64,000 bases of DNA. Origin: Cetobacterium sp. 2A (GTDB lineage: Bacteria; Fusobacteriota; Fusobacteriia; Fusobacteriales; Fusobacteriaceae). Shown in pieces: positions 1,655-53,976 of this stretch; within the stretch, counting starts at the first letter, position 1, and the number at the start of each line of letters is the position of its first letter. The notes beneath the pieces are model-generated. The model was not told the origin of the DNA and made no database searches. It saw only the letters and a list, made by a program, of their open reading frames with translations. The stretch covers positions 310,001-374,000 of the forward strand of contig NZ_JACFAJ010000006.1 of the NCBI RefSeq assembly GCF_014250685.1, read 5' to 3'. The translations under genes were made by a program, and so were the position numbers.

Positions 1655-4600
1655 TTATTCAATCTCGTCAATACTAATTCCATCAAATAGATATGTATTT
1701 GGAGAGACGTTATTACTTGTATCTGATTTTGCACCAAGACCAAAAATTGGAGTTTCTGGGAAAGTAAGAAGTTTAAATTGAAGTGCAACTTGCCATTCAT
1801 GACCTCTTGTTCCATAGTCATATTCTCTTACATATGCTATAGCCCATTCATAGTATCCAAATTCTTTCCCTATTTCAACACCTACACCATCTAGCGTTTT
1901 CTTTCCGTAATCTGTAGTATCAGTATTTTGTACTCCATTTAATCCATCTAAGAATTTAACGTAAGTTTTTACTCTCCAACCTTCACTTGGTTTTCCTATT
2001 TTAGCATGTAAACTAACTTCATGTTCTTTTTCAGAATCTTGCCAAATATCTCCACCATTCCAGAAAGATTTTTGATTATATATATATCCAATTCCATATC
2101 TGTTATATGAATAGAATAATCTTCCTTCAACTTCTTCTAACGATTTCCAATAATCTCCAGTCATATCATATCTTTTCTCATTTTTTTGAAGCATTATAGA
2201 TGTTGATAGACTTTGCTTATAATCTCCAAAATATATTCTATCATCCATGATGCTATTCAAATTAAATCTTGTAGATTCTCTATCATTGGCTCTATCTTTT
2301 AGTATATTTCTAACTCTATCCAACTCCACTTGTGAGAGCTCATTAGGAGATTTTTTATACTCAGACGCTGCGTATCCAACCAATTCTTGATCTGTGAATC
2401 TTTTATCTCTGTAATCATATCTCAAATATAGTACATCCGAATTCCAACGTTCAACATCTGGATTTTCATCTGTACGTTTATACTCCTCGTAGCTGGCCTT
2501 ATAGAAATGCTCTACATCTCCGCCATCTAAATACGATACTGAGTATATTTTATTTTTAAGATTTATTTCAGATTTATCTTCGGTAATATTATATCTCTTA
2601 TCACTACCTTCAGTATATTCTAAATTAAGTTTATTTTCTCCAAAATTCTTAATATATCCATAAATATCTTCATTGATTTTCTCTCTCGAGTTGTCAGTTG
2701 AATAATTATAGTCATTGTTATAAGGTAAAATATCAAAAATATTAGATTTTATTTGCTGATTTCTATAGTAAAAATTATTTGTATTGTATGTATAATTTAC
2801 ACCATAATTTCTAAATGTCAAATCATTATAATTTTCTCTATTTGTATTTTCATCTGTATATCTTTTATTTTCTTTGTAATCTAAGCTTAAGATATTCTCT
2901 TCGTCAATTTTAAAATCAATTTTATGTTCTATAATTTCTCCAGATTTTTCATCATCGTAAGCTCTTTTTAACTCTGTATAATTTACATTATAAATAGTCT
3001 CTGTATTTCCAAAATCAAAAGTAACAGTATCAAAAAATTCATTTTTATTTTCTTTGTGATATAGTCTAATTGTTTCCGTCATATTCCCTTCATCTGAAGA
3101 GCTATAATCGTAATTTTGATTAAAATATTTAAATTTATTTGTAACGCCTATATCTGCAAATCTATTTCTATTCCAAGTATTATCATATAGAGGAACCTCG
3201 TATGTAACGCCGATTTGGCTTCTAGTTGAAGAATCTCCTGTTGAAACTTTTTTACCATTATCTCCATATTTAAAATCTGTATCTGAATATGTGTATCCTT
3301 TACTATATTCATCAAATCTCAAATTTCCCTCTACTGCTAAAGTTCCTAAAACTCCCATTCTAAATCTATCTTGGGCTAAACCTATTTCATAGAAACTTGA
3401 ATCATTTATATATTTTTTATAAGCATCATTGTTACTGTCATCGTCACTGTTAGGATAATTATAAATTCCTTTTCTATCCCAAATTTCTTCATGAGTTTGT
3501 CCACCAGCTAATGTAAGTCTGGTATAATTTTTTCTAAATTCTACGAATCCTCTTTGTTCATCGTATTTATTATATATAATATTTTCATATCTATTAAACT
3601 GTTTATCTCTTTCATTATTAAAAATTACATCTTCTCTAAAAGGATCATTTTCTAAATCTAATTTTTGTTCTATAAATTTGTAATCAAATCCAACTTTATA
3701 TTTTGAATCTCCAATAAAATCATACTCTCCAGCTACTAAACTTAAGTCTCTGTTATCATATATAGAGTACTGTGATACAGTCCACGGTGTATAATTTAGT
3801 GGAATTCCTGAAATAGTTTGTTCTGATAAATTTTTTAAATTAGGATCTCTTTCCCAAGAATTTAACTTTCTATATTTATCTCCAGATTTATCATCATATT
3901 TTATAGAGTAAGTATATTTTTTATCTACAAAATTAAATCCAAATGCCTCAGATTTTGATTCTAAATCTTCTGGCGTTGAACCAGGATCCATATCGTATAA
4001 ATATTTATAATATCCATTTGCTAAATATCTATCATTCTCTTGTTTTAAAGATACATCGGCAAACAAATCAAAATCTACTGCTGAACCATAACCCAGGTCA
4101 TCTAATTGATCAGCTATTAAAACTCCATAAGCTTTTTTATCAGATATTAATTTAGTTTTAGCCTCAATTGTAATATCCTTACTTTCACCAAGACCTGTAA
4201 GTTTAGTATCTAAAGAATAAAATCCTATGCTATCTCCAAGTTCTGGAATAGGATCATCAGAATCATTATTATTTTTATAGAATTTCCAGTTACTTTCATT
4301 TAATAGTCCTATTCTACTATAATCTTCTATAGCATCTTTTAAAGATGGAATCATATTATATGTAGCATTTCTATAATTAAAGTTTAGCTTTCCATACTCT
4401 CCATCATAATTATGAGAATACTCTCCATCCCATCTATCAAAACTTCTGATTACATCGCTTGAATCAGCTTTTTTTTGAACTAACCAATCTGTAATATTAA
4501 GTCTTGATTCTCCATATTTTTCAGTTTTATACCATGTTTCACTTTTCCCAACTAGAAGTCCCATTCTATCGGCAAACTTTGGAGCAAATCCTCCCTTTAG

Positions 4601-5410
4601 TTTACTATCTCTATCACCATAAAGAGCTCCCCAACTTGTGTACCATCCGTAGTCGTCATCACTTCCCCACATTGGAAATAGTGGAACTGTTGATCCTTGT
4701 CTTATATTAAATCTATACCAAGGTAATTTGAAAGGAATAATATCACTTTCCCCTATGAATAAATCTGAATTGTGAAATGTCACTTGTTTATCAGGTTCAA
4801 TTGTTATCAAATCTGAAGCTAAATGGTATCCTGTTTCAAATGGATTAGCATTAGCTATTATTGCTGGATCTGTTGTAAACCAAGCATTTCTAATAAATAC
4901 TTTACCATTCAAATATTCTGATTTTTCTCCACCAAAATACAATCTGTCATTCGGTTTTTCGGCTCCAGTTACTTGACCTACTTCTAAATATCCAAAACTT
5001 TTTCCAAAACTTCCTTCTGTTCCATCTAAATTAAATTCTCCATCTCTGGCATCTATTTTAAGTTTTCCCGTTGGTTCATCAGCTTCCATAAAAAAAGGTC
5101 CTGTCAAATATGCTCTATTTGCAACTCTATCTCTCCTGGCATTGAAGGCTTTCATTTTTAAAGTTCCATATTTTAAATTAACTCCATCTTTAGAAATTAA
5201 TGTATCATTATTTAAGTCTATCTCAACTTCATTATCATCGTATGCGCTAACAGGAGTACTATCATCAACTTGAATATCAGTGGCATTTTTTCCTGCCTCC
5301 GCTATTGAGTTAAATGTATTTTTTAGCTCTGTCCTTTGACTATTCTCATTAGCCTTTGCTCCCAGCCCTAAGAGTATAAAAGAAGCTACTAAATAGTATC
5401 TTTTTTTCAT
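1655..5410 (-). CDS. lptD: LptD-like LPS-assembly outer membrane protein
   Basis: This is a 1251-residue exported beta-barrel protein, probably the LptD (OstA/Imp) homologue that inserts lipopolysaccharide into the outer leaflet. A signal peptide (KKRYYLVASFILLGLGAKA) is followed by an OstA-like N-terminal region of about 200 residues, for example LISKDGVNLKYGTLKMKAFN. Then comes the conserved transition into the barrel, near residues 225-260 (LPWYRFNIRQGSTVPLFPMW). The rest is repetitive, Tyr/Asn/Asp-rich and strand-like. It is much longer than E. coli LptD (784 aa). I find no cysteine anywhere, so the disulfides that mature E. coli LptD cannot form. No lptE is nearby. A TATAAT box about 40 bp upstream of the ATG suggests its own promoter. 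The family call is good, but function in this organism is inferred. Confidence 0.82.
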   Translation of the reverse strand: MKKRYYLVASFILLGLGAKANENSQRTELKNTFNSIAEAGKNATDIQVDDSTPVSAYDDNEVEIDLNNDTLISKDGVNLKYGTLKMKAFNARRDRVANRAYLTGPFFMEADEPTGKLKIDARDGEFNLDGTEGSFGKSFGYLEVGQVTGAEKPNDRLYFGGEKSEYLNGKVFIRNAWFTTDPAIIANANPFETGYHLASDLITIEPDKQVTFHNSDLFIGESDIIPFKLPWYRFNIRQGSTVPLFPMWGSDDDYGWYTSWGALYGDRDSKLKGGFAPKFADRMGLLVGKSETWYKTEKYGESRLNITDWLVQKKADSSDVIRSFDRWDGEYSHNYDGEYGKLNFNYRNATYNMIPSLKDAIEDYSRIGLLNESNWKFYKNNNDSDDPIPELGDSIGFYSLDTKLTGLGESKDITIEAKTKLISDKKAYGVLIADQLDDLGYGSAVDFDLFADVSLKQENDRYLANGYYKYLYDMDPGSTPEDLESKSEAFGFNFVDKKYTYSIKYDDKSGDKYRKLNSWERDPNLKNLSEQTISGIPLNYTPWTVSQYSIYDNRDLSLVAGEYDFIGDSKYKVGFDYKFIEQKLDLENDPFREDVIFNNERDKQFNRYENIIYNKYDEQRGFVEFRKNYTRLTLAGGQTHEEIWDRKGIYNYPNSDDDSNNDAYKKYINDSSFYEIGLAQDRFRMGVLGTLAVEGNLRFDEYSKGYTYSDTDFKYGDNGKKVSTGDSSTRSQIGVTYEVPLYDNTWNRNRFADIGVTNKFKYFNQNYDYSSSDEGNMTETIRLYHKENKNEFFDTVTFDFGNTETIYNVNYTELKRAYDDEKSGEIIEHKIDFKIDEENILSLDYKENKRYTDENTNRENYNDLTFRNYGVNYTYNTNNFYYRNQQIKSNIFDILPYNNDYNYSTDNSREKINEDIYGYIKNFGENKLNLEYTEGSDKRYNITEDKSEINLKNKIYSVSYLDGGDVEHFYKASYEEYKRTDENPDVERWNSDVLYLRYDYRDKRFTDQELVGYAASEYKKSPNELSQVELDRVRNILKDRANDRESTRFNLNSIMDDRIYFGDYKQSLSTSIMLQKNEKRYDMTGDYWKSLEEVEGRLFYSYNRYGIGYIYNQKSFWNGGDIWQDSEKEHEVSLHAKIGKPSEGWRVKTYVKFLDGLNGVQNTDTTDYGKKTLDGVGVEIGKEFGYYEWAIAYVREYDYGTRGHEWQVALQFKLLTFPETPIFGLGAKSDTSNNVSPNTYLFDGISIDEIE

Positions 5411-19611: not shown

Positions 19612-19625
19612 TTTTCAAAAAATCA

Positions 19626-19680
19626 AAGTAGCCGACTTGTTAGCCGGCTACTTCTATTTCTTGGGAGAGAAATTTATGAA
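19626..19680 (+). repeat. Hairpin-plus-tail repeat, copy 1
   Basis: A 9-bp perfect stem (AAGTAGCCG 19626-19634 with CGGCTACTT 19645-19653) has a loop containing GTTAGC. A short spacer then leads to a 22-bp tail (19659-19680) with core TTGGGAGAGAAATTTATG. The same layout recurs 90 bp on. GGGAGAG followed by ATG resembles a ribosome site and start codon, opening a 17-codon frame. The hairpin may also terminate yigZ transcription, though no T-run follows. Confidence 0.7.
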
Positions 19681-19712
19681 AAATTTTATTAGCACACTTT
19701 TTTTAAATTCTC

Positions 19713-19770
19713 GGAGAAGGCCAGGTTAGCGGCCAGCCTTCTCCTAACTCTTGGGAGAGAAATTTATGAA
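19713..19770 (+). repeat. Hairpin-plus-tail repeat, copy 2
   Basis: The stem GGAGAAGGC (19713-19721) with GCCTTCTCC (19736-19744) is 9 bp and perfect, but its sequence is unrelated to the copy 1 stem. The loop again holds GTTAGC (19725-19730). The tail at 19749-19770 is identical to copy 1 over 22 bp, exactly 90 bp away. The ATG in this tail opens only four codons before TAG. Different stems with the same loop and tail suggest conserved RNA structure. Confidence 0.7.
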
Positions 19771-19804
19771 TTTTTTTTAGCATCTTTACATAATAAGACG
19801 ACAA

Positions 19805-19813
19805 CTCTCCCAA
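19805..19813 (-). repeat. Inverted third copy of the TTGGGAGAG motif
   Basis: CTCTCCCAA on the plus strand is the exact reverse complement of the TTGGGAGAG at the head of both repeat tails (19661, 19751). In a plus-strand transcript it could pair with either tail. On the minus strand it lies just past the stop of the small exported protein gene. Confidence 0.5.
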
Positions 19814-19826
19814 AAAAGTTTTAAAA

Positions 19827-20303
19827 TTATTTATTTTTTTTTAAAAAGTTTATAATAAATTTATAATTTTCTATAGAACTATCAAAATATCTCTTTTGTT
19901 CCGCAGTATTTTTAGGGTAAAGTCTTTCCCCCTCAGCTTTAAATCTTTCCACTATCTCTTTAGGAACTGCTAACTTATCAACTTTTACTACTACTCTATT
20001 TTGTAGTTCTTTACTAAATTTAATCTCTTCTCTCATTTTCTTTAACTGCATAGAATAATTATACGGATACATGCTTTCTACCCTTTTTAAAAAGTAATCA
20101 TACTCTTCTGGCGAAAGTTCTTCCCCCAATTTTTCTAATTTATTATATGCTTTAATTTCTGATTCTATATAATTTTGTTGACTCGAATACGAATCATACT
20201 GTCTTTGCGCTCTATCTCTTAGTTTATCCATAGCTTTTTCACTTATTTGAGAATGTGATATATTTCCTATTACAATCATGAGACATAAAATTTTTTTTAT
20301 CAT
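19827..20303 (-). CDS. Small exported protein, paralogue of the gene at 21453-21944
   Basis: A 158-residue protein with a signal peptide (IKKILCLMIVIGNISHSQIS) and a charged, helical mature part. I do not recognise a named family. It is clearly related to the 163-residue protein at 21453-21944. Both share QNYIE/KDYIQ followed by an AYNKL/AYKNI stretch, a YNY/GNY patch, VP then FK, LYP, and the ending SSIENYKFIINFLKKNK. Each lies directly after a FomA-like porin gene, here by 2 bp, so the two genes are almost certainly co-expressed. A periplasmic or cell-surface role linked to the porin is a guess. Confidence 0.75.
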   Translation of the reverse strand: MIKKILCLMIVIGNISHSQISEKAMDKLRDRAQRQYDSYSSQQNYIESEIKAYNKLEKLGEELSPEEYDYFLKRVESMYPYNYSMQLKKMREEIKFSKELQNRVVVKVDKLAVPKEIVERFKAEGERLYPKNTAEQKRYFDSSIENYKFIINFLKKNK

Positions 20304-20305
20304 AA

Positions 20306-21403
20306 TTAAAACTTAGTCTCCCAACCAATTACAACCTCTGGATTCCATCTCCACTCTTGAGCATCAGAACCAGTTGTATATCTATTTGCATAGACACCTT
20401 TAACTCTTAAATAAGTATTAAATGACTCAGTTGCTTGATAATCTATTCTCAATTCAGGGATAGCTTTTAGATAGTATTGATAATCACTAAATCCTCTACT
20501 TCTTAATCTTTCTGCACCTTCAAGATTTGTATTTCCTCTTGTTCTAAATATATCTTTATTCTTCCAGATATAAGGGTCATATCCTCCTTCAAACGCAAGA
20601 CTAAGCTTTGTATCTTCATTAAATCTATATATTTCATGGTTATAATAAAGAAGAGCTTCCATCGCTATTGTAAAAGTTTTATCAGTTGTCGACGTTGCGG
20701 AGTCTGCAATATTAGCATTTTGCCAAGTATTGAAAGCATAGAAATTAAGTTCAAATGTGAAATCTGCTGGAAAGTTATAATTTGTATATAAATCTACCCC
20801 AAATAAATTAGCTGAATTTGAAGTATTCTTATTTTCCCACTGGTATCCATAGAAAGGTGCTAATGTAAAATTAGTAACTTTTACATATTCAGTTTCTGTG
20901 AAATATTCTTTAAAATTAAATCTTGGTTGATACGAAAGAAGTAAATCAAGACCTATTCCATTACTTGCTAACAGGTTATCCTGCTCAGGATCAACTGCAT
21001 CTCCCGCCAGAAATTTTGTTGTTTTTTCAAATCTTATTCTATGAGTTAGATTAACTTTAGTATCTCCTAAGTAACCCGCATCATAGTACCATCTAGTTCT
21101 AAAATCTGATCCATCTGATCCTGTTTCATTATTATCATGAACATTAAAGTTATATCTTAATCTGAAATCCCCAGACAATCTCTCTGTCATCTGTATAAAT
21201 CCTTCGGCTGCTCTAAATCTTACTGAATCTGAATTTGTTTGCCCTTCTCCATTTCCAAAGTACTCTAACTCTTGCATGAAAGTTCCACTTGGTCTAAAAG
21301 TAGGTATCTCCTCGATAATTATAGGAGTCACAATAGTTTCCTTTGCTTGAACTGCTGTTCCAATCACCATAAGTGACCCAATTAAAAGTGCTAACTTTTT
21401 CAT
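20306..21403 (-). CDS. FomA-like outer membrane porin, second copy
   Basis: A 365-residue beta-barrel protein with a cleavable signal (KKLALLIGSLMVIGTAVQA). A short linker containing IPTFRPSG is followed by alternating amphipathic strands and a C-terminal strand ending WNPEVVIGWETKF with the usual terminal Phe. The signal and the FRPSG/WRWNP marks match the fusobacterial FomA family of major porins. The paralogue at 22001-23113 has the same layout. A minus-strand TATAAT lies at 21446-21441, so this copy probably has its own promoter. Confidence 0.82.
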   Translation of the reverse strand: MKKLALLIGSLMVIGTAVQAKETIVTPIIIEEIPTFRPSGTFMQELEYFGNGEGQTNSDSVRFRAAEGFIQMTERLSGDFRLRYNFNVHDNNETGSDGSDFRTRWYYDAGYLGDTKVNLTHRIRFEKTTKFLAGDAVDPEQDNLLASNGIGLDLLLSYQPRFNFKEYFTETEYVKVTNFTLAPFYGYQWENKNTSNSANLFGVDLYTNYNFPADFTFELNFYAFNTWQNANIADSATSTTDKTFTIAMEALLYYNHEIYRFNEDTKLSLAFEGGYDPYIWKNKDIFRTRGNTNLEGAERLRSRGFSDYQYYLKAIPELRIDYQATESFNTYLRVKGVYANRYTTGSDAQEWRWNPEVVIGWETKF

Positions 21404-21452: not shown

Positions 21453-21944
21453 TTATTTTTTGTTTTCCTTTAAATATTTTATAATCAAGCTATAGTTCTC
21501 AATTGAACCATCAATATATTTTTTCTGATTTAAAGAGTTATCTGGATATAGTTTTTTAGCTTGTAGTTTAAAACCATTTAAAAGTTCTAACGGAACATTT
21601 TCACTATCTAGTTTAGAAAATATTTCACTTGATTTCTGTTCAACTTTATTGTAACTAAAAATCTCATCTTGAACTACCGAATTTTGTTTTACATAATTCC
21701 CACCATACATTTTTGAAAGTCTATATATAATTTCCTTTTGATCTTTATCAGAAAGTTTAGAATTGTTTAACTTTTGTAAAATATTTTTATATGCTTCTGT
21801 TTGCTCCTGTATATAATCTTTTTGATCTCTCGATTTTTGATAAATTGTTCTTGCATCAGATTCTATTTTATTTTCTACATTTTTATCAATAGATGCCATA
21901 AGATTTATAGATAGTAATAGTAACGTAATTATTAATTTTTTCAT
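21453..21944 (-). CDS. Small exported protein following the first FomA-like porin
   Basis: 163 residues with signal peptide KKLIITLLLLSINLMAS and a mature part rich in Lys, Glu, Gln and Asn that should be helical or coiled-coil. The family is not known to me. It ends SIENYSLIIKYLKENKK, nearly the same as the paralogue at 19827-20303. A GGAGGA site precedes the ATG. It lies 56 bp past the first porin, with the porin terminator between them, so it is read by read-through or by a weak promoter. Confidence 0.75.
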   Translation of the reverse strand: MKKLIITLLLLSINLMASIDKNVENKIESDARTIYQKSRDQKDYIQEQTEAYKNILQKLNNSKLSDKDQKEIIYRLSKMYGGNYVKQNSVVQDEIFSYNKVEQKSSEIFSKLDSENVPLELLNGFKLQAKKLYPDNSLNQKKYIDGSIENYSLIIKYLKENKK

Positions 21945-22000: not shown

Positions 22001-23113
22001 TTAGAATGTTGTTTTAAATCCAGCGTAAACTTGTGGCTGCCAAGACCAGTCTTTAGCAGTTGACTCGTTTGTATAAGTAAAGTTCTCGTATCTTGCAATT
22101 ACTCCTGCGAATAAGTTTAAAGTATCTGAGTACTTGTAGTTGTTCTTTAAATCAGCTTCGAAGAATGCTGAGTATTGAACTTGATCATCGTTGTAAATAA
22201 CTTCTTTACTCTTCCAAGTCCAAGTATCTACTGCAACCATGAAGTTAAGGTTTGTTGAGAAAGCACCGTTTTGATATAATCCAAATCCTCTAGTAAGTTC
22301 AGCAAGAACGTCTATTTGGAAGTATTTGTCTTCTTTCTCTCCAGTTTTCTTGTTTGTAGCTAACTTTCCATTTCCTAACCAGTTTTGGTAAGCATCTATC
22401 TCTAAGTTAAGATCAAGACCTAATGGTAATTCGAATCCAGCTAAGAATTGTGCTCCAAATTGATTGTCGTATGCTGAGTTATTTTGTAACCAAGTATACT
22501 CATATCTAGGCTCTACGCTTAATCTGTATAGTGAAACTAGAGATGTATCAAATTTAACGTATTCAGTTACATCTAACTTAGCTCTATATTCAACTGATTG
22601 ATTATTTTTTCCAGCTCCGTATGTAAATGGTGACTCAGGAGAAACTATTGTTGCTCTTCCTCTTCCATCACTGTTTTCATATTGAATTCTTGATTTGAAT
22701 CCTACTTTTGTATCTCCGATAGTTCCGTGGTTACGGTAGTATCTAAGTCTAGTTCCAGTGTAGTCAGATCCTACAACTTGATTTGGGTCAAGTTGTTTTG
22801 CGAATGACTCTAGTCCTACATAGTTTCTTACTCTGAACTCAAATGTATCTTGCTCAGTAAAGTTTACTAATCCTTCTGTATGTACTCTTCCGTATTCAGC
22901 TACGTCTTTTCTATCAGTTTCCCCATAATATTTTGTTTCGAATTTTAACCAACCATTTGGTCTAAAAACAGGAGCTTCCTCTACTATTACGATAGGAGCT
23001 ACAATAACTTCCTTTGATTCTTCAATAACTACTGGTGCTGCTACAACCTCTTTAGCTTGAGCTACTGCTCCAACCATCATAAGAGATCCTACTAAAAGTG
23101 CTAACTTTTTCAT
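22001..23113 (-). CDS. FomA-like major outer membrane porin, first copy
   Basis: A 370-residue porin-like barrel. Signal peptide KKLALLVGSLMMVGAVAQA is followed by two near-repeats of a VVAAPVVIEE-like segment, then EAPVFRPNGWLKFETKYYGE and a strand-rich body ending WSWQPQVYAGFKTTF. These match the start and end of Fusobacterium FomA, a voltage-dependent general porin and abundant surface antigen. A strong promoter is visible 70-98 bp upstream and a terminator follows. Codons look more biased to frequent forms than in the second copy, which fits high expression, but I judged this only by eye. Confidence 0.85.
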   Translation of the reverse strand: MKKLALLVGSLMMVGAVAQAKEVVAAPVVIEESKEVIVAPIVIVEEAPVFRPNGWLKFETKYYGETDRKDVAEYGRVHTEGLVNFTEQDTFEFRVRNYVGLESFAKQLDPNQVVGSDYTGTRLRYYRNHGTIGDTKVGFKSRIQYENSDGRGRATIVSPESPFTYGAGKNNQSVEYRAKLDVTEYVKFDTSLVSLYRLSVEPRYEYTWLQNNSAYDNQFGAQFLAGFELPLGLDLNLEIDAYQNWLGNGKLATNKKTGEKEDKYFQIDVLAELTRGFGLYQNGAFSTNLNFMVAVDTWTWKSKEVIYNDDQVQYSAFFEADLKNNYKYSDTLNLFAGVIARYENFTYTNESTAKDWSWQPQVYAGFKTTF

Positions 23114-37309: not shown

Positions 37310-37711
37310 TTAATTTTTACTTTGTAATCTTTTAAGAGCTATTTCTCTTGCCTTTATATATTGTTCAGTTGAAATATATTCTTGAACAGCTATTTGATAT
37401 CTAAACTTATCCTTAATAATTGAAGCTTCAATAGCTCCTAGCTGATCCGCCAATTCATCTAACTTATCTAAATTCTTCTTTGGATTATCCAATATACATT
37501 TATTTACTTCAATCTCTAAAGACTTTCTATCTAAGATTAAAAGCTTATATTTACTACTTGCCTCGCTGATTATCTGTTTAACTTGATTTATATTTTCTTG
37601 AGGTACTCCAACATTTTTAAAATCATCATCTGCTATAATCCCCAAACCTTCGTTTCCAAATGAAGATAATGTTAAAATCAAGAAAAATATGCTTGTAAAT
37701 ATCTTACTCAT
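37310..37711 (-). CDS. Small exported helical protein in the sigma-factor operon (Spy/CpxP-like?)
   Basis: A 133-residue protein with a signal peptide (SKIFTSIFFLILTLSSFG) and a helical mature part. Pairs of helices (NINQVKQIISEASSKYKLLI and RYQIAVQEYISTEQYIKARE) recall the Spy/CpxP/ZraP type of periplasmic stress chaperone, but the LTxxQ hallmark is not present. I treat the family as unknown. It is the third gene after an ECF sigma factor and a short membrane protein, so it may be a periplasmic sensor or target of that system. Confidence 0.6.
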   Translation of the reverse strand: MSKIFTSIFFLILTLSSFGNEGLGIIADDDFKNVGVPQENINQVKQIISEASSKYKLLILDRKSLEIEVNKCILDNPKKNLDKLDELADQLGAIEASIIKDKFRYQIAVQEYISTEQYIKAREIALKRLQSKN

Positions 37712-37723
37712 AAACTTCCTCCA

Positions 37724-38044
37724 CTAAATTTGTAATTCTGAAACAAAAAGTTTTTCTGTACTAAAGTCCTCTGTAACTTTTTTAAAATCACTCTGCTCAA
37801 AGAAATGCTCTATATTCCACTCTATTGATTTTTGAGTTTTTTTATCAACTCTCTCCTCTTTGTTGAAAGCTGTATTTTTTTGTAAAATATCTGGTCCTTT
37901 AAAAATAAGGTCATATGATGTTCCTGTAAAGATGCCCATTACAAAAAGTGAAACTGAAAGAATAGATACTTTCTTATTTTTTTTCTTTTCTTCCTCAAGT
38001 AAATTTTTGTATATATTGGCTCTAACTCTTTCTTTTGGAGTCAT
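37724..38044 (-). CDS. Short single-pass membrane protein, candidate anti-sigma factor
   Basis: 106 residues: a basic cytoplasmic N-terminus of about 28 (TPKERVRANIYKNLLEEEKK), one membrane helix (about 30-48, VSILSVSLFVMGIFTGTSY) and a charged outer part. The position directly after an ECF sigma gene fits an anti-sigma factor, although no zinc-binding HxxxCxxC motif is present. The ATG at 38044 comes one base after the sigma stop (TAGTATG), with GGAGG inside the sigma gene. The start at 38056 (GTG) overlaps that ribosome site and is unlikely. Confidence 0.6.
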   Translation of the reverse strand: MTPKERVRANIYKNLLEEEKKKNKKVSILSVSLFVMGIFTGTSYDLIFKGPDILQKNTAFNKEERVDKKTQKSIEWNIEHFFEQSDFKKVTEDFSTEKLFVSELQI

Positions 38045-38045
38045 A

Positions 38046-38498
38046 CTAAATTGCACCTCCCATATCCTTAATCGCCTTGTAGTATATTGTTTTTATCGTC
38101 GATAGATTCAAATCTTTCATATCTGCTATCTCTCTTAACTTATAACCATAAATATCTTTTAGTACCACTATCTCCCTCTCTTGAAAACTAAGTTTTTTAA
38201 GATTTTCTTCTAATAAAATTGGCCCATGAACATCTGTATAAGATTCTAAATTTAATATCTCATCATTTAACTCCATATTCAATTTTCTTTTCCTAAAGAA
38301 GTCATAAGTTTTATTTATAGCTATCCTATAAATCCAAGTGTAGAGATTGCTGTCCTTTCTAAAGCTCTTCAAATTTTTATATACACTGATAAAAACTTCT
38401 TGAGCGATATCTTCGGCATCCTCAGGATTTTTTACAACACTGAGAATTTTATAATACACTCTATCAAAATATGTGTCGTAGATTTCCTCAAAGTCCAT
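38046..38498 (-). CDS. ECF-type RNA polymerase sigma factor
   Basis: 150 residues. Region 2 runs DFEEIYDTYFDRVYYKIL to AEDIAQEVFISVYKNLKSF, ending with RIAINKTYDFFRKRK. Region 4 is LSFQEREIVVLKDIYGYKLREIADMKDLNLSTI (two adjoining pieces). Region 3 is absent, as in the sigma-70 ECF group. It likely directs RNA polymerase to envelope-stress genes. It leads a three-gene unit with a membrane protein and an exported protein. The stimulus is not readable. Confidence 0.9.
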   Translation of the reverse strand: MDFEEIYDTYFDRVYYKILSVVKNPEDAEDIAQEVFISVYKNLKSFRKDSNLYTWIYRIAINKTYDFFRKRKLNMELNDEILNLESYTDVHGPILLEENLKKLSFQEREIVVLKDIYGYKLREIADMKDLNLSTIKTIYYKAIKDMGGAI

Positions 38499-38570
38499 TT
38501 AATCCCTCACAGTAAAAAGATACTCTTAACATAAATTAGACTCTAAAACTTATTAAAAAGTTTTATTTTT

Positions 38571-52509: not shown

Positions 52510-53976
52510 CTACTTCTCTAGAAGAATATTATAATCATTTTTCTCACCATGAATACTTTCTACAAGTTCTAAAATTTTTCCTTTTTTTGCTAAATATGAA
52601 TTTATAAAATCTAGATAAATTTCCTCTAACTTATGGCAGATATCCTTAGTAGTAACTACTTTAATTTTTCTTATATCCTCTTCTGTAGATAGTTCTTTAA
52701 TTTCTTTTATTATAGATTCTACAATAGATTTTTTAGATTTTATTCTTCCTGTTCCATTACATTTTGGACATTCCTCTTGGAAATAATAAAATAATGGATT
52801 TCCAGTTCTTTTTCTAGTCATCTCTACAAGACCTAAATCTGTGAAATGAATTATATTATTTTTTATTCTATCTTTGCTTAAACTTTTTTCTAAAGCTTCT
52901 GTCACTTTAATCTTATCTGCTTCAAGTTTCATATCAATAAAATCTATTATTATTATTCCGCTCAAATTTCTAAGTCTTAGCTGTCTTGCAATCTCAACTG
53001 CAGCCTCAACGTTTGTATTCACAACCGTTTCTTCTAAATTTAAAGTTCCAGTATTTTTTCCAGTATTTACATCTATACTTATTAAGGCTTCTGTTTTTTG
53101 GATAACTAAATATCCTCCGCATTCAAGCCAAACTACTTCTTTTAAGGCATTTTCTATTTCCTTATTGATGTTATATACTTCAAATATATCTTTGCTATCT
53201 CTATAAAGTTTAATTTTTGTCTTCAGATTATTTTCACTAAATGCATTGATATAATCTATTATTTCCCAATAAGCTTCCTCATTATCTACAATTAACTCAT
53301 CTATTTGATTACTGAAAATATCTCTCAATATTTTTGTAACTATATCATTATCTCTGTAAAGAGTATCTCCAATTTTTGCTTTTGAAATTTTTCTGTCTGT
53401 CTCTTCCCATTTTTTTGAAAGATACTGAATCTCTCTTTCAAAATGGTAAATAGATTTTCCTTCCGCAGCAGTTCTAATAATTACTCCCATTCCATCAGGT
53501 TTTATCTCTTTGAATAATTCCTCAAGTCTAGCTCTTTCTTTTTCATTTTTTATTTTTTTAGAAATAGCTATGTGATCATTATTTGGCATAAGCACTAAGT
53601 ATTTTCCAGGAACAGTAAAATGTGTTGTAACTCTAGCTCCTTTACTTCCTCTTGGCTCGCTTAAAACCTGAACAACTACATCATCACCAACAGTTAGTAT
53701 ATCTTCAATAGGTCTATTACTATTTTCAATTCCATCTAAATATTTTTCTTCAAATTCTCTTAGATCATTTACGTAAAGAAATCCATTTTTTTCAAGTCCA
53801 ATATTTACAAAAGCTGACTCCATTCCCGGAAGAACATTAGCAACTTTTCCCTTATAAATATTTCCATTTATGGTTCCTTCCCCATATCTTTCTATAAAAA
53901 ATTCCAAAACTTTACCGTTTTCTAAAATAGCAGCACGAGTTTGAAATTTATCTATGTTTATTATTATCTGGTTCAT
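52510..53976 (-). CDS. rng: Ribonuclease E/G family protein (RNase G-like)
   Basis: A 488-residue endoribonuclease involved in rRNA maturation and mRNA decay. An S1 domain (about 35-120: GNIYKGKVANVLPGMESAFV) is followed by the catalytic DNase I-like part, with Asp in LISIDVNTGKNTG and IIIIDFIDMK. The zinc-link is CPKCNGTGRI. It lacks the long C-terminal scaffold of RNase E, so it is the G type. It overlaps the radical SAM gene by 29 bp. Confidence 0.93.
   Translation of the reverse strand: MNQIIINIDKFQTRAAILENGKVLEFFIERYGEGTINGNIYKGKVANVLPGMESAFVNIGLEKNGFLYVNDLREFEEKYLDGIENSNRPIEDILTVGDDVVVQVLSEPRGSKGARVTTHFTVPGKYLVLMPNNDHIAISKKIKNEKERARLEELFKEIKPDGMGVIIRTAAEGKSIYHFEREIQYLSKKWEETDRKISKAKIGDTLYRDNDIVTKILRDIFSNQIDELIVDNEEAYWEIIDYINAFSENNLKTKIKLYRDSKDIFEVYNINKEIENALKEVVWLECGGYLVIQKTEALISIDVNTGKNTGTLNLEETVVNTNVEAAVEIARQLRLRNLSGIIIIDFIDMKLEADKIKVTEALEKSLSKDRIKNNIIHFTDLGLVEMTRKRTGNPLFYYFQEECPKCNGTGRIKSKKSIVESIIKEIKELSTEEDIRKIKVVTTKDICHKLEEIYLDFINSYLAKKGKILELVESIHGEKNDYNILLEK

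What the first reader, a model, noticed from the sequence alone, without database searches (positions are those of the whole stretch)
19620..19815. Tandem hairpin-plus-tail repeat with a ribosome-site-like core
Two units 90 bp apart share a 22-bp identical tail and a GTTAGC loop, while their 9-bp stems differ in sequence yet are both perfect. That pattern points to selection for RNA structure rather than simple duplication. The tail reads GGGAGAG, six bases, then ATG, which looks like a translation start. It opens 17 codons (MKNFISTLFLNSRRRPG) in copy 1 and 4 codons in copy 2. A reverse complement of TTGGGAGAG follows at 19805-19813 and could pair with either start. A small RNA, a leader-peptide device, a mobile miniature repeat or a terminator pair are all possible.
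Basis: seen in the sequence. Interest (0 to 1): 0.6.

Follow-up and report, generated by a model that had tools for sequence, protein, structure and literature searches.

The report
Double-seeded porin-silencing small RNA (predicted)
The repeat is best read on the opposite strand as a small regulatory RNA gene of the FoxI type, probably switched on by an envelope-stress sigma factor, which carries the same mRNA-blocking sequence twice and is predicted to shut down the two outer-membrane porin genes beside it.

Summary
The repeat is real, but the functional strand is the minus strand. Read there, 19821-19617 is a small-RNA gene. It has an ECF/sigmaE-type promoter (AAACTTTTTT-N11-CGTC), then seed A, a hairpin without a U-tract, seed B, and an intrinsic terminator. 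The next genes on that strand include two FomA-family porins. Among 68 translation starts tested, these two pair best with seed B (-29.8 and -28.8 kcal/mol; 0 of 1000 shuffles). GCUAA, the complement of fomA codons 4-5, occurs four times (0.52 expected). An ECF sigma gene in the window has the same promoter motif. A sister species has the orthologous locus, in the same order after fomA, with one seed. Related promoter+C-seed units occur across Fusobacteriaceae, several of them right upstream of fomA. In mode of action this matches the published sigmaE sRNAs FoxI/FoxJ of Fusobacterium nucleatum, which repress FomA. The doubled seed recalls Listeria LhrC. Nothing was measured. Verdict: a new variant (tandem double seed) of a known kind.

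The parts
19797..19821 (-). ECF/sigmaE-type promoter: -35 AAACTTTTTT (19821-19812), -10 CGTC (19800-19797)
   Evidence: Motif AAACTTTTTN10-13GTC is at 3 places in the window against 0.17 expected. It is conserved in 17 aligned units from 5 genera and also precedes the ECF sigma gene.
19617..19789 (-). Inferred sRNA transcript, about 173 nt (start inferred, plus or minus a few nt)
   Evidence: Minimum free energy -52.8 kcal/mol, z = -5.5; lies between promoter and terminator.
19750..19770 (-). Seed A: UUCAUAAAUUUCUCUCCCAAG, complementary to Shine-Dalgarno plus AUGAA
   Evidence: duplex with fomA starts -24.9 and -24.8 kcal/mol.
19777..19782 (-). UGCUAA motif 5' of seed A (complement of fomA UUAGCA)
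19713..19744 (-). Spacer hairpin, 12 bp, no U-tract; loop shows GCUAAC (19730-19725), complement of fomA GUUAGC
19689..19694 (-). UGCUAA motif 5' of seed B
19660..19680 (-). Seed B, identical 21-mer
   Evidence: Duplex with fomA1 -29.8 and fomA2 -28.8 kcal/mol, ranks 1 and 2 of 68 starts; 0 of 1000 shuffles.
19616..19654 (-). Intrinsic terminator: 13-bp stem, loop region with GCUAAC (19644-19639), tail GATTTTTTG
   Evidence: terminator-like site on the minus strand; the spacer hairpin does not qualify.
20306..21403 (-). FomA-family porin 1, predicted target
   Evidence: NF049910 E = 2.4e-90.
22001..23113 (-). FomA-family porin 2, predicted target
   Evidence: NF049910 E = 2.7e-83.
19827..20303 (-). 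158-aa secreted helical protein gene between fomA and the sRNA; no terminator before the sRNA
   Evidence: no Pfam or NCBIfam match. Same place in sister species.
38046..38498 (-). ECF sigma factor gene, candidate activator
   Evidence: Sigma70_r2 E = 2.6e-17.
38539..38563 (-). Promoter of the ECF sigma gene with the same motif (AAACTTTTTAATAAGTTTTAGAGTC)
   Evidence: the same motif in the sister's sigma gene.

Best explanation
The feature is a trans-acting small RNA gene on the minus strand (19821-19617). An ECF (sigmaE-like) sigma factor, probably the one encoded at 38046-38498, is inferred to transcribe it under envelope stress. The RNA contains two near-identical modules (UGCUAA...UUCAUAAAUUUCUCUCCCAAG) separated by a hairpin, and ends at an intrinsic terminator. 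Each module is antisense to the ribosome-binding site, start codon and codons 4-5 of fomA porin mRNAs, including the two fomA genes beside it. Base pairing should block translation initiation and lower porin synthesis, as FoxI and FoxJ do in F. nucleatum. The duplicated seed should raise potency or let one RNA hold two mRNAs. Shown by sequence: anatomy, conservation, synteny, complementarity and the shared promoter motif. Inferred: transcription, sigma dependence, repression, and what the second seed does.
For: Fold stronger on the minus strand and terminator on the minus strand. Promoter motif is rare in the window and shared with the ECF sigma gene, also in the sister. The two adjacent FomA-family porins are the two best of 68 translation starts for seed B, with 0 of 1000 seed or start shuffles as good. 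GCUAA occurs 4 times against 0.52 in shuffles, 0 of 500. Sister species G001 has fomA - helical gene - fomA - helical gene - sRNA in the same order, and its sRNA pairs with its own fomA1 at -36.3 kcal/mol (0 of 100 shuffles). Homologous units occur across the family and lie directly upstream of fomA in G014, G016 and G036. FoxI and FoxJ: sigmaE-dependent, C-rich seed, repress FomA (PMC11005410); FoxI pairs around the fomA start codon (PMC12153356).
Against: No RNA-seq or expression data. C-rich seeds favour any strong Shine-Dalgarno, so non-porin starts also rank high (1655-5410 third, 37310-37711 fourth for seed B; 1655-5410 is first for seed A). Energies from duplexfold ignore accessibility, and about half of CUCUCCC is predicted paired in the isolated RNA. 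Within g12, fomA pairing is no better than shuffles for G050 and for one G049 fomA. That the 150-aa ECF factor is the sigmaE orthologue rests on its shared promoter motif.
Confidence: 0.85

Rival explanations
1. The RNA is mainly the processed 3' UTR of the fomA operon mRNA, which has no terminator before 19654, so that porin mRNA itself releases the repressor (autogenous feedback); the ECF-like promoter is minor.
For: The sRNA starts right after the stop codon of the last operon gene, and no terminator lies between them. The operon order is kept in the sister species.
Against: A strongly conserved ECF-type promoter sits directly upstream of every unit, including units far from fomA (L091, L080-L096) and units upstream of fomA.
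Confidence: 0.1
2. Two ordinary terminators between convergent genes, with a duplicated intergenic stretch of no regulatory role.
For: Convergent gene order (YigZ-family gene plus strand, fomA operon minus strand); the distal hairpin is a good terminator.
Against: The spacer hairpin has no U-tract. The seed and promoter, not the hairpins, are what is conserved between species. Complementarity to the adjacent porins is far above shuffles.
Confidence: 0.04
3. Plus-strand leader peptide or ribosome-binding device that starts at the ATGs.
For: Good Shine-Dalgarno spacing; the first codons are alike in three copies (MKNFIS, MKKFIS, MKNFIS).
Against: Peptides end at different places (17, 4, 10 and at least 30 codons); copy 2 stops after 4 codons; no downstream plus-strand gene is controlled; several other genera lack the ATG altogether.
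Confidence: 0.02
4. Mobile miniature repeat.
For: Two copies in tandem and two more loci in the sister species.
Against: Only these two copies in the whole genome; hairpins unrelated in sequence; no target-site duplication or terminal repeat seen; locus is syntenic with the sister.
Confidence: 0.01

Closest known systems
FoxI (Fusobacterium nucleatum sigmaE-dependent sRNA)
   Same: ECF/sigmaE-type promoter shared with the sigma gene; C-rich seed in an AU-rich stretch; fomA start region as target.
   Different: Here two identical seed modules with a hairpin between them in one RNA, encoded right behind the fomA operon.
FoxJ (F. nucleatum, about 156 nt)
   Same: sigmaE-dependent, C-stretch, represses fomA.
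   Different: FoxJ lies between der and ylmH and has its C-stretch in a hairpin loop; the present locus is beside fomA.
LhrC1-5 (Listeria monocytogenes)
   Same: Envelope-stress induced; one RNA carries several redundant CU-rich (UCCC) sites that bind the mRNA start region (PMC4132741).
   Different: Other phylum, LisRK two-component control, different target (lapB), UCCC partly in loops; no sequence relation claimed.
MicA / RybB / MicL (enterobacterial sigmaE sRNAs)
   Same: Envelope-stress sigma factor plus sRNA arm that represses outer-membrane proteins.
   Different: Hfq-dependent (own knowledge) and unrelated in sequence; F. nucleatum is reported to lack Hfq and ProQ (PMC11005410).

Membership tests
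FoxI/FoxJ-type sigmaE-dependent porin-repressing sRNA | Promoter shared with the ECF sigma gene | tested here: met
   AAACTTTTT-N-GTC at 19821 and at 38563, 3 places in 64 kb against 0.17 expected; also before the sister's sigma gene. Sigma dependence itself not tested.
FoxI/FoxJ-type sigmaE-dependent porin-repressing sRNA | C-rich seed complementary to the fomA start region | tested here: met
FoxI/FoxJ-type sigmaE-dependent porin-repressing sRNA | Short discrete RNA with intrinsic terminator | tested here: inconclusive
   Terminator found; transcript not observed.
FoxI/FoxJ-type sigmaE-dependent porin-repressing sRNA | Represses FomA translation in the cell | not testable with these tools
   Needs a reporter or Western blot.
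FoxI orthologue in the strict sense | Sequence and synteny match with F. nucleatum foxI | not tested
   FoxI sequence is in papers not held; the one named-genome scan returned no F. nucleatum match.
FoxJ orthologue | Location between der and ylmH | tested here: not met
   Neighbours are a YigZ-family gene and the fomA operon.
LhrC-like multivalent CU-rich sRNA (mode of action only) | Several redundant CU-rich pairing sites in one RNA | tested here: met
   Two identical seeds 90 nt apart.
Any Rfam RNA family | Covariance-model match at gathering score | tested here: not met
   No match reaches its gathering score.

The most novel reading that the evidence does not exclude
Fusobacteriaceae carry a large, fast-evolving family of ECF-sigma-driven, multivalent C-seed sRNAs: several loci per genome, tandem promoter-seed units, GCUAA motifs that track the fomA codons. 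In the window the duplicated module lets a single RNA silence two porin mRNAs at once, and the gene sits where read-through of the porin operon could also produce it.
Probability: 0.35. Interest if true: 0.65.

Novelty: new variant of a known kind. Interest (0 to 1): 0.52.

Why it matters
The sigmaE-sRNA-porin circuit was described in F. nucleatum and argued to parallel that of Proteobacteria. This locus and its relatives suggest that the circuit spans Fusobacteriaceae, is often encoded beside its fomA target, and changes by duplicating its seed. That makes a clean, testable natural case of seed multivalency in bacteria reported to lack Hfq and ProQ, and a seed set from which to build an RNA family model.

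Tried and rejected
(1) Plus-strand reading: no conserved peptide, no downstream gene. (3) Rfam at permissive E-value: chance hits only. (4) A direct test against F. nucleatum FoxI: papers not held; the single named-genome pattern scan gave F. gastrosuis, two Fusobacterium MAGs and one Fusobacteriaceae MAG among many evident chance hits. (5) FadA (PF09403) as a marker to find an F. nucleatum genome among the unnamed ones: inconclusive. (6) Third promoter-motif match (52880-52903 plus) lies inside a coding sequence on the opposite strand and was dismissed. (7) Several pattern hits in other genomes (L075-L077, L086, L090) look like coding sequence and were dropped. (8) Covariation test of the two hairpins: not meaningful, because they are not homologous positions (spacer and terminator).

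Full report
OBSERVATION. The two 22-bp copies (19659-19680, 19749-19770), the perfect stems, the shared GTTAGC and the CTCTCCCAA at 19805-19813 are all present. The 21-bp core occurs nowhere else in the 2.59-Mb genome, even with three mismatches.

STRAND. Folding favours the minus strand (z = -7.56 against -3.87). Restricted to the inferred transcript the values are -5.5 against -3.2. The only terminator-like site in the repeat is on the minus strand: GAAGUAGCCGGCUAACAAGUCGGCUACUUU followed by GAUUUUUUG. The other hairpin (GGAGAAGGCUGG-loop-CUGGCCUUCUCC) has no U-tract, so transcription should read through it.

PROMOTER. Just upstream on the minus strand is AAACTTTTTTGGGAGAGTTGTCGTC. The motif AAACTTTTTN10-13GTC is at three places in the 64-kb window (0.17 expected): here, directly before an ECF sigma factor gene (38046-38498), and once inside a coding sequence. 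The sister species' sigma gene has a near-identical motif. An ECF gene and an sRNA that share one promoter motif is what is published for rpoE, foxI and foxJ in F. nucleatum (PMC11005410).

RELATIVES. The sister species G001 has two single-seed versions, each with the same promoter and its own, sequence-unrelated terminator hairpin. One of them is the syntenic orthologue: fomA, helical gene, fomA, helical gene, sRNA, as in the window. A pattern of promoter plus C-rich seed finds further units in other genera. Seventeen units align with invariant AAACTTTTT, GTC and CTC-C cores. A sequence model from them finds 15 loci at E < 1e-12 and some match at E <= 0.01 in 55 of 61 genomes of the family; outside it only 5 of 35 genomes match, weakly (E >= 0.0016). 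The model was trained on some of these loci, so the strong hits are partly by construction. In G014, G016 and G036 the unit lies directly upstream of fomA. F. gastrosuis (L105) carries the same unit as G014.

TARGETS. The genes next to the sRNA on the same strand are two FomA-family porins (NF049910, E = 2.4e-90 and 2.7e-83), each paired with a gene for a small secreted helical protein. Of 68 translation starts (66 in the window plus two porin genes elsewhere), seed B pairs best with exactly these two porins (-29.8, -28.8 kcal/mol); for seed A they rank second and third. No shuffle out of 1000, of seed B or of start region, does as well. The pairing joins CUCUCC to the Shine-Dalgarno, UUUUUCAU to AUGAAAAA, and GUGCUAA-like sequence to UUAGCAC. 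The third-ranked start for seed B is a 1251-aa protein with an N-terminal signal-like sequence, and the fourth is the 133-aa gene of the sigma operon. FoxI is reported to lower rpoE expression, so the fourth may be meaningful, but this is speculation. GCUAA, the complement of fomA codons 4-5, occurs four times in the RNA (0.52 expected, 0 of 500 shuffles): twice beside the seeds and twice in the hairpin loop regions. Genera whose fomA reads TTAGC (g3, g6) also have one GCUAA in the sRNA, and g5 and g12 have none. In those genera the single counts are not individually significant.

MECHANISM. Most likely the ECF sigma factor transcribes the RNA under envelope stress, the RNA base-pairs over the ribosome-binding site and start codon of fomA mRNAs, and porin synthesis falls. 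The repeated seed adds avidity or allows two targets per RNA. Only the anatomy, conservation and complementarity are shown; expression and effect are inferred. Because no terminator separates the operon from the sRNA, some RNA may also come from the operon's 3' end.

MULTIVALENCY ELSEWHERE. In genus g4 (L202, L205, L207, L208) two or three promoter+C-seed units stand in tandem, apparently before a single terminator. In g2 each RNA has one C-stretch in the open part and one in the terminator loop. LhrC of Listeria is the documented precedent for redundant CU-rich sites in one RNA (PMC4132741). I found no report of such a duplication in Fusobacteriota, but the library held is limited.

MEMBERSHIP. 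It works like FoxI. Whether it is FoxI by descent could not be tested. It is not at the FoxJ locus.

Noticed in passing
L211 (G000:C1:449235-449312, minus strand): A second candidate ECF-promoter, C-rich sRNA in the same genome: AAAACTTTTTTGAGGGTAACTGCGTC, then CCCCC and CCCCCC stretches and a terminator with CCCCCC in its loop, between a methyltransferase-like gene and a GltD-like gene.
   Followed up: partly
G002-G010 (genus g2); L196, L198, L200, L203, L204, L206: Some genomes of this genus have 10-19 matches of the sRNA model each, with a C-stretch both in the open part and in the terminator loop; looks like a multicopy sRNA family.
   Followed up: partly
L202, L205, L207, L208 (genus g4): Tandem ECF promoter plus C-seed units, two or three in a row about 90-136 bp apart, with hairpins that lack U-tracts between them and a terminator only at the end.
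   Followed up: partly
window 37310-38498, minus strand: Apparent ECF sigma operon: sigma factor, 110-aa protein overlapping it (possible anti-sigma factor), 133-aa secreted protein; the last ranks fourth as sRNA target.
   Followed up: no
window 19827-20303 and 21453-21944, minus strand: Two related small secreted helical proteins, each next to a fomA porin, with no Pfam or NCBIfam match; FadA-like in size but not matching FadA.
   Followed up: no
window 1655-5410, minus strand: 1251-aa protein with N-terminal signal-like sequence and no Pfam match whose start pairs strongly with the seed (-28.6 kcal/mol); possibly a large outer-membrane protein.
   Followed up: no
window 19805-19813: CTCTCCCAA (plus strand) inside the spacer of the sRNA promoter, complementary to the repeat tail; absent in sister copies, probably chance.
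   Followed up: yes
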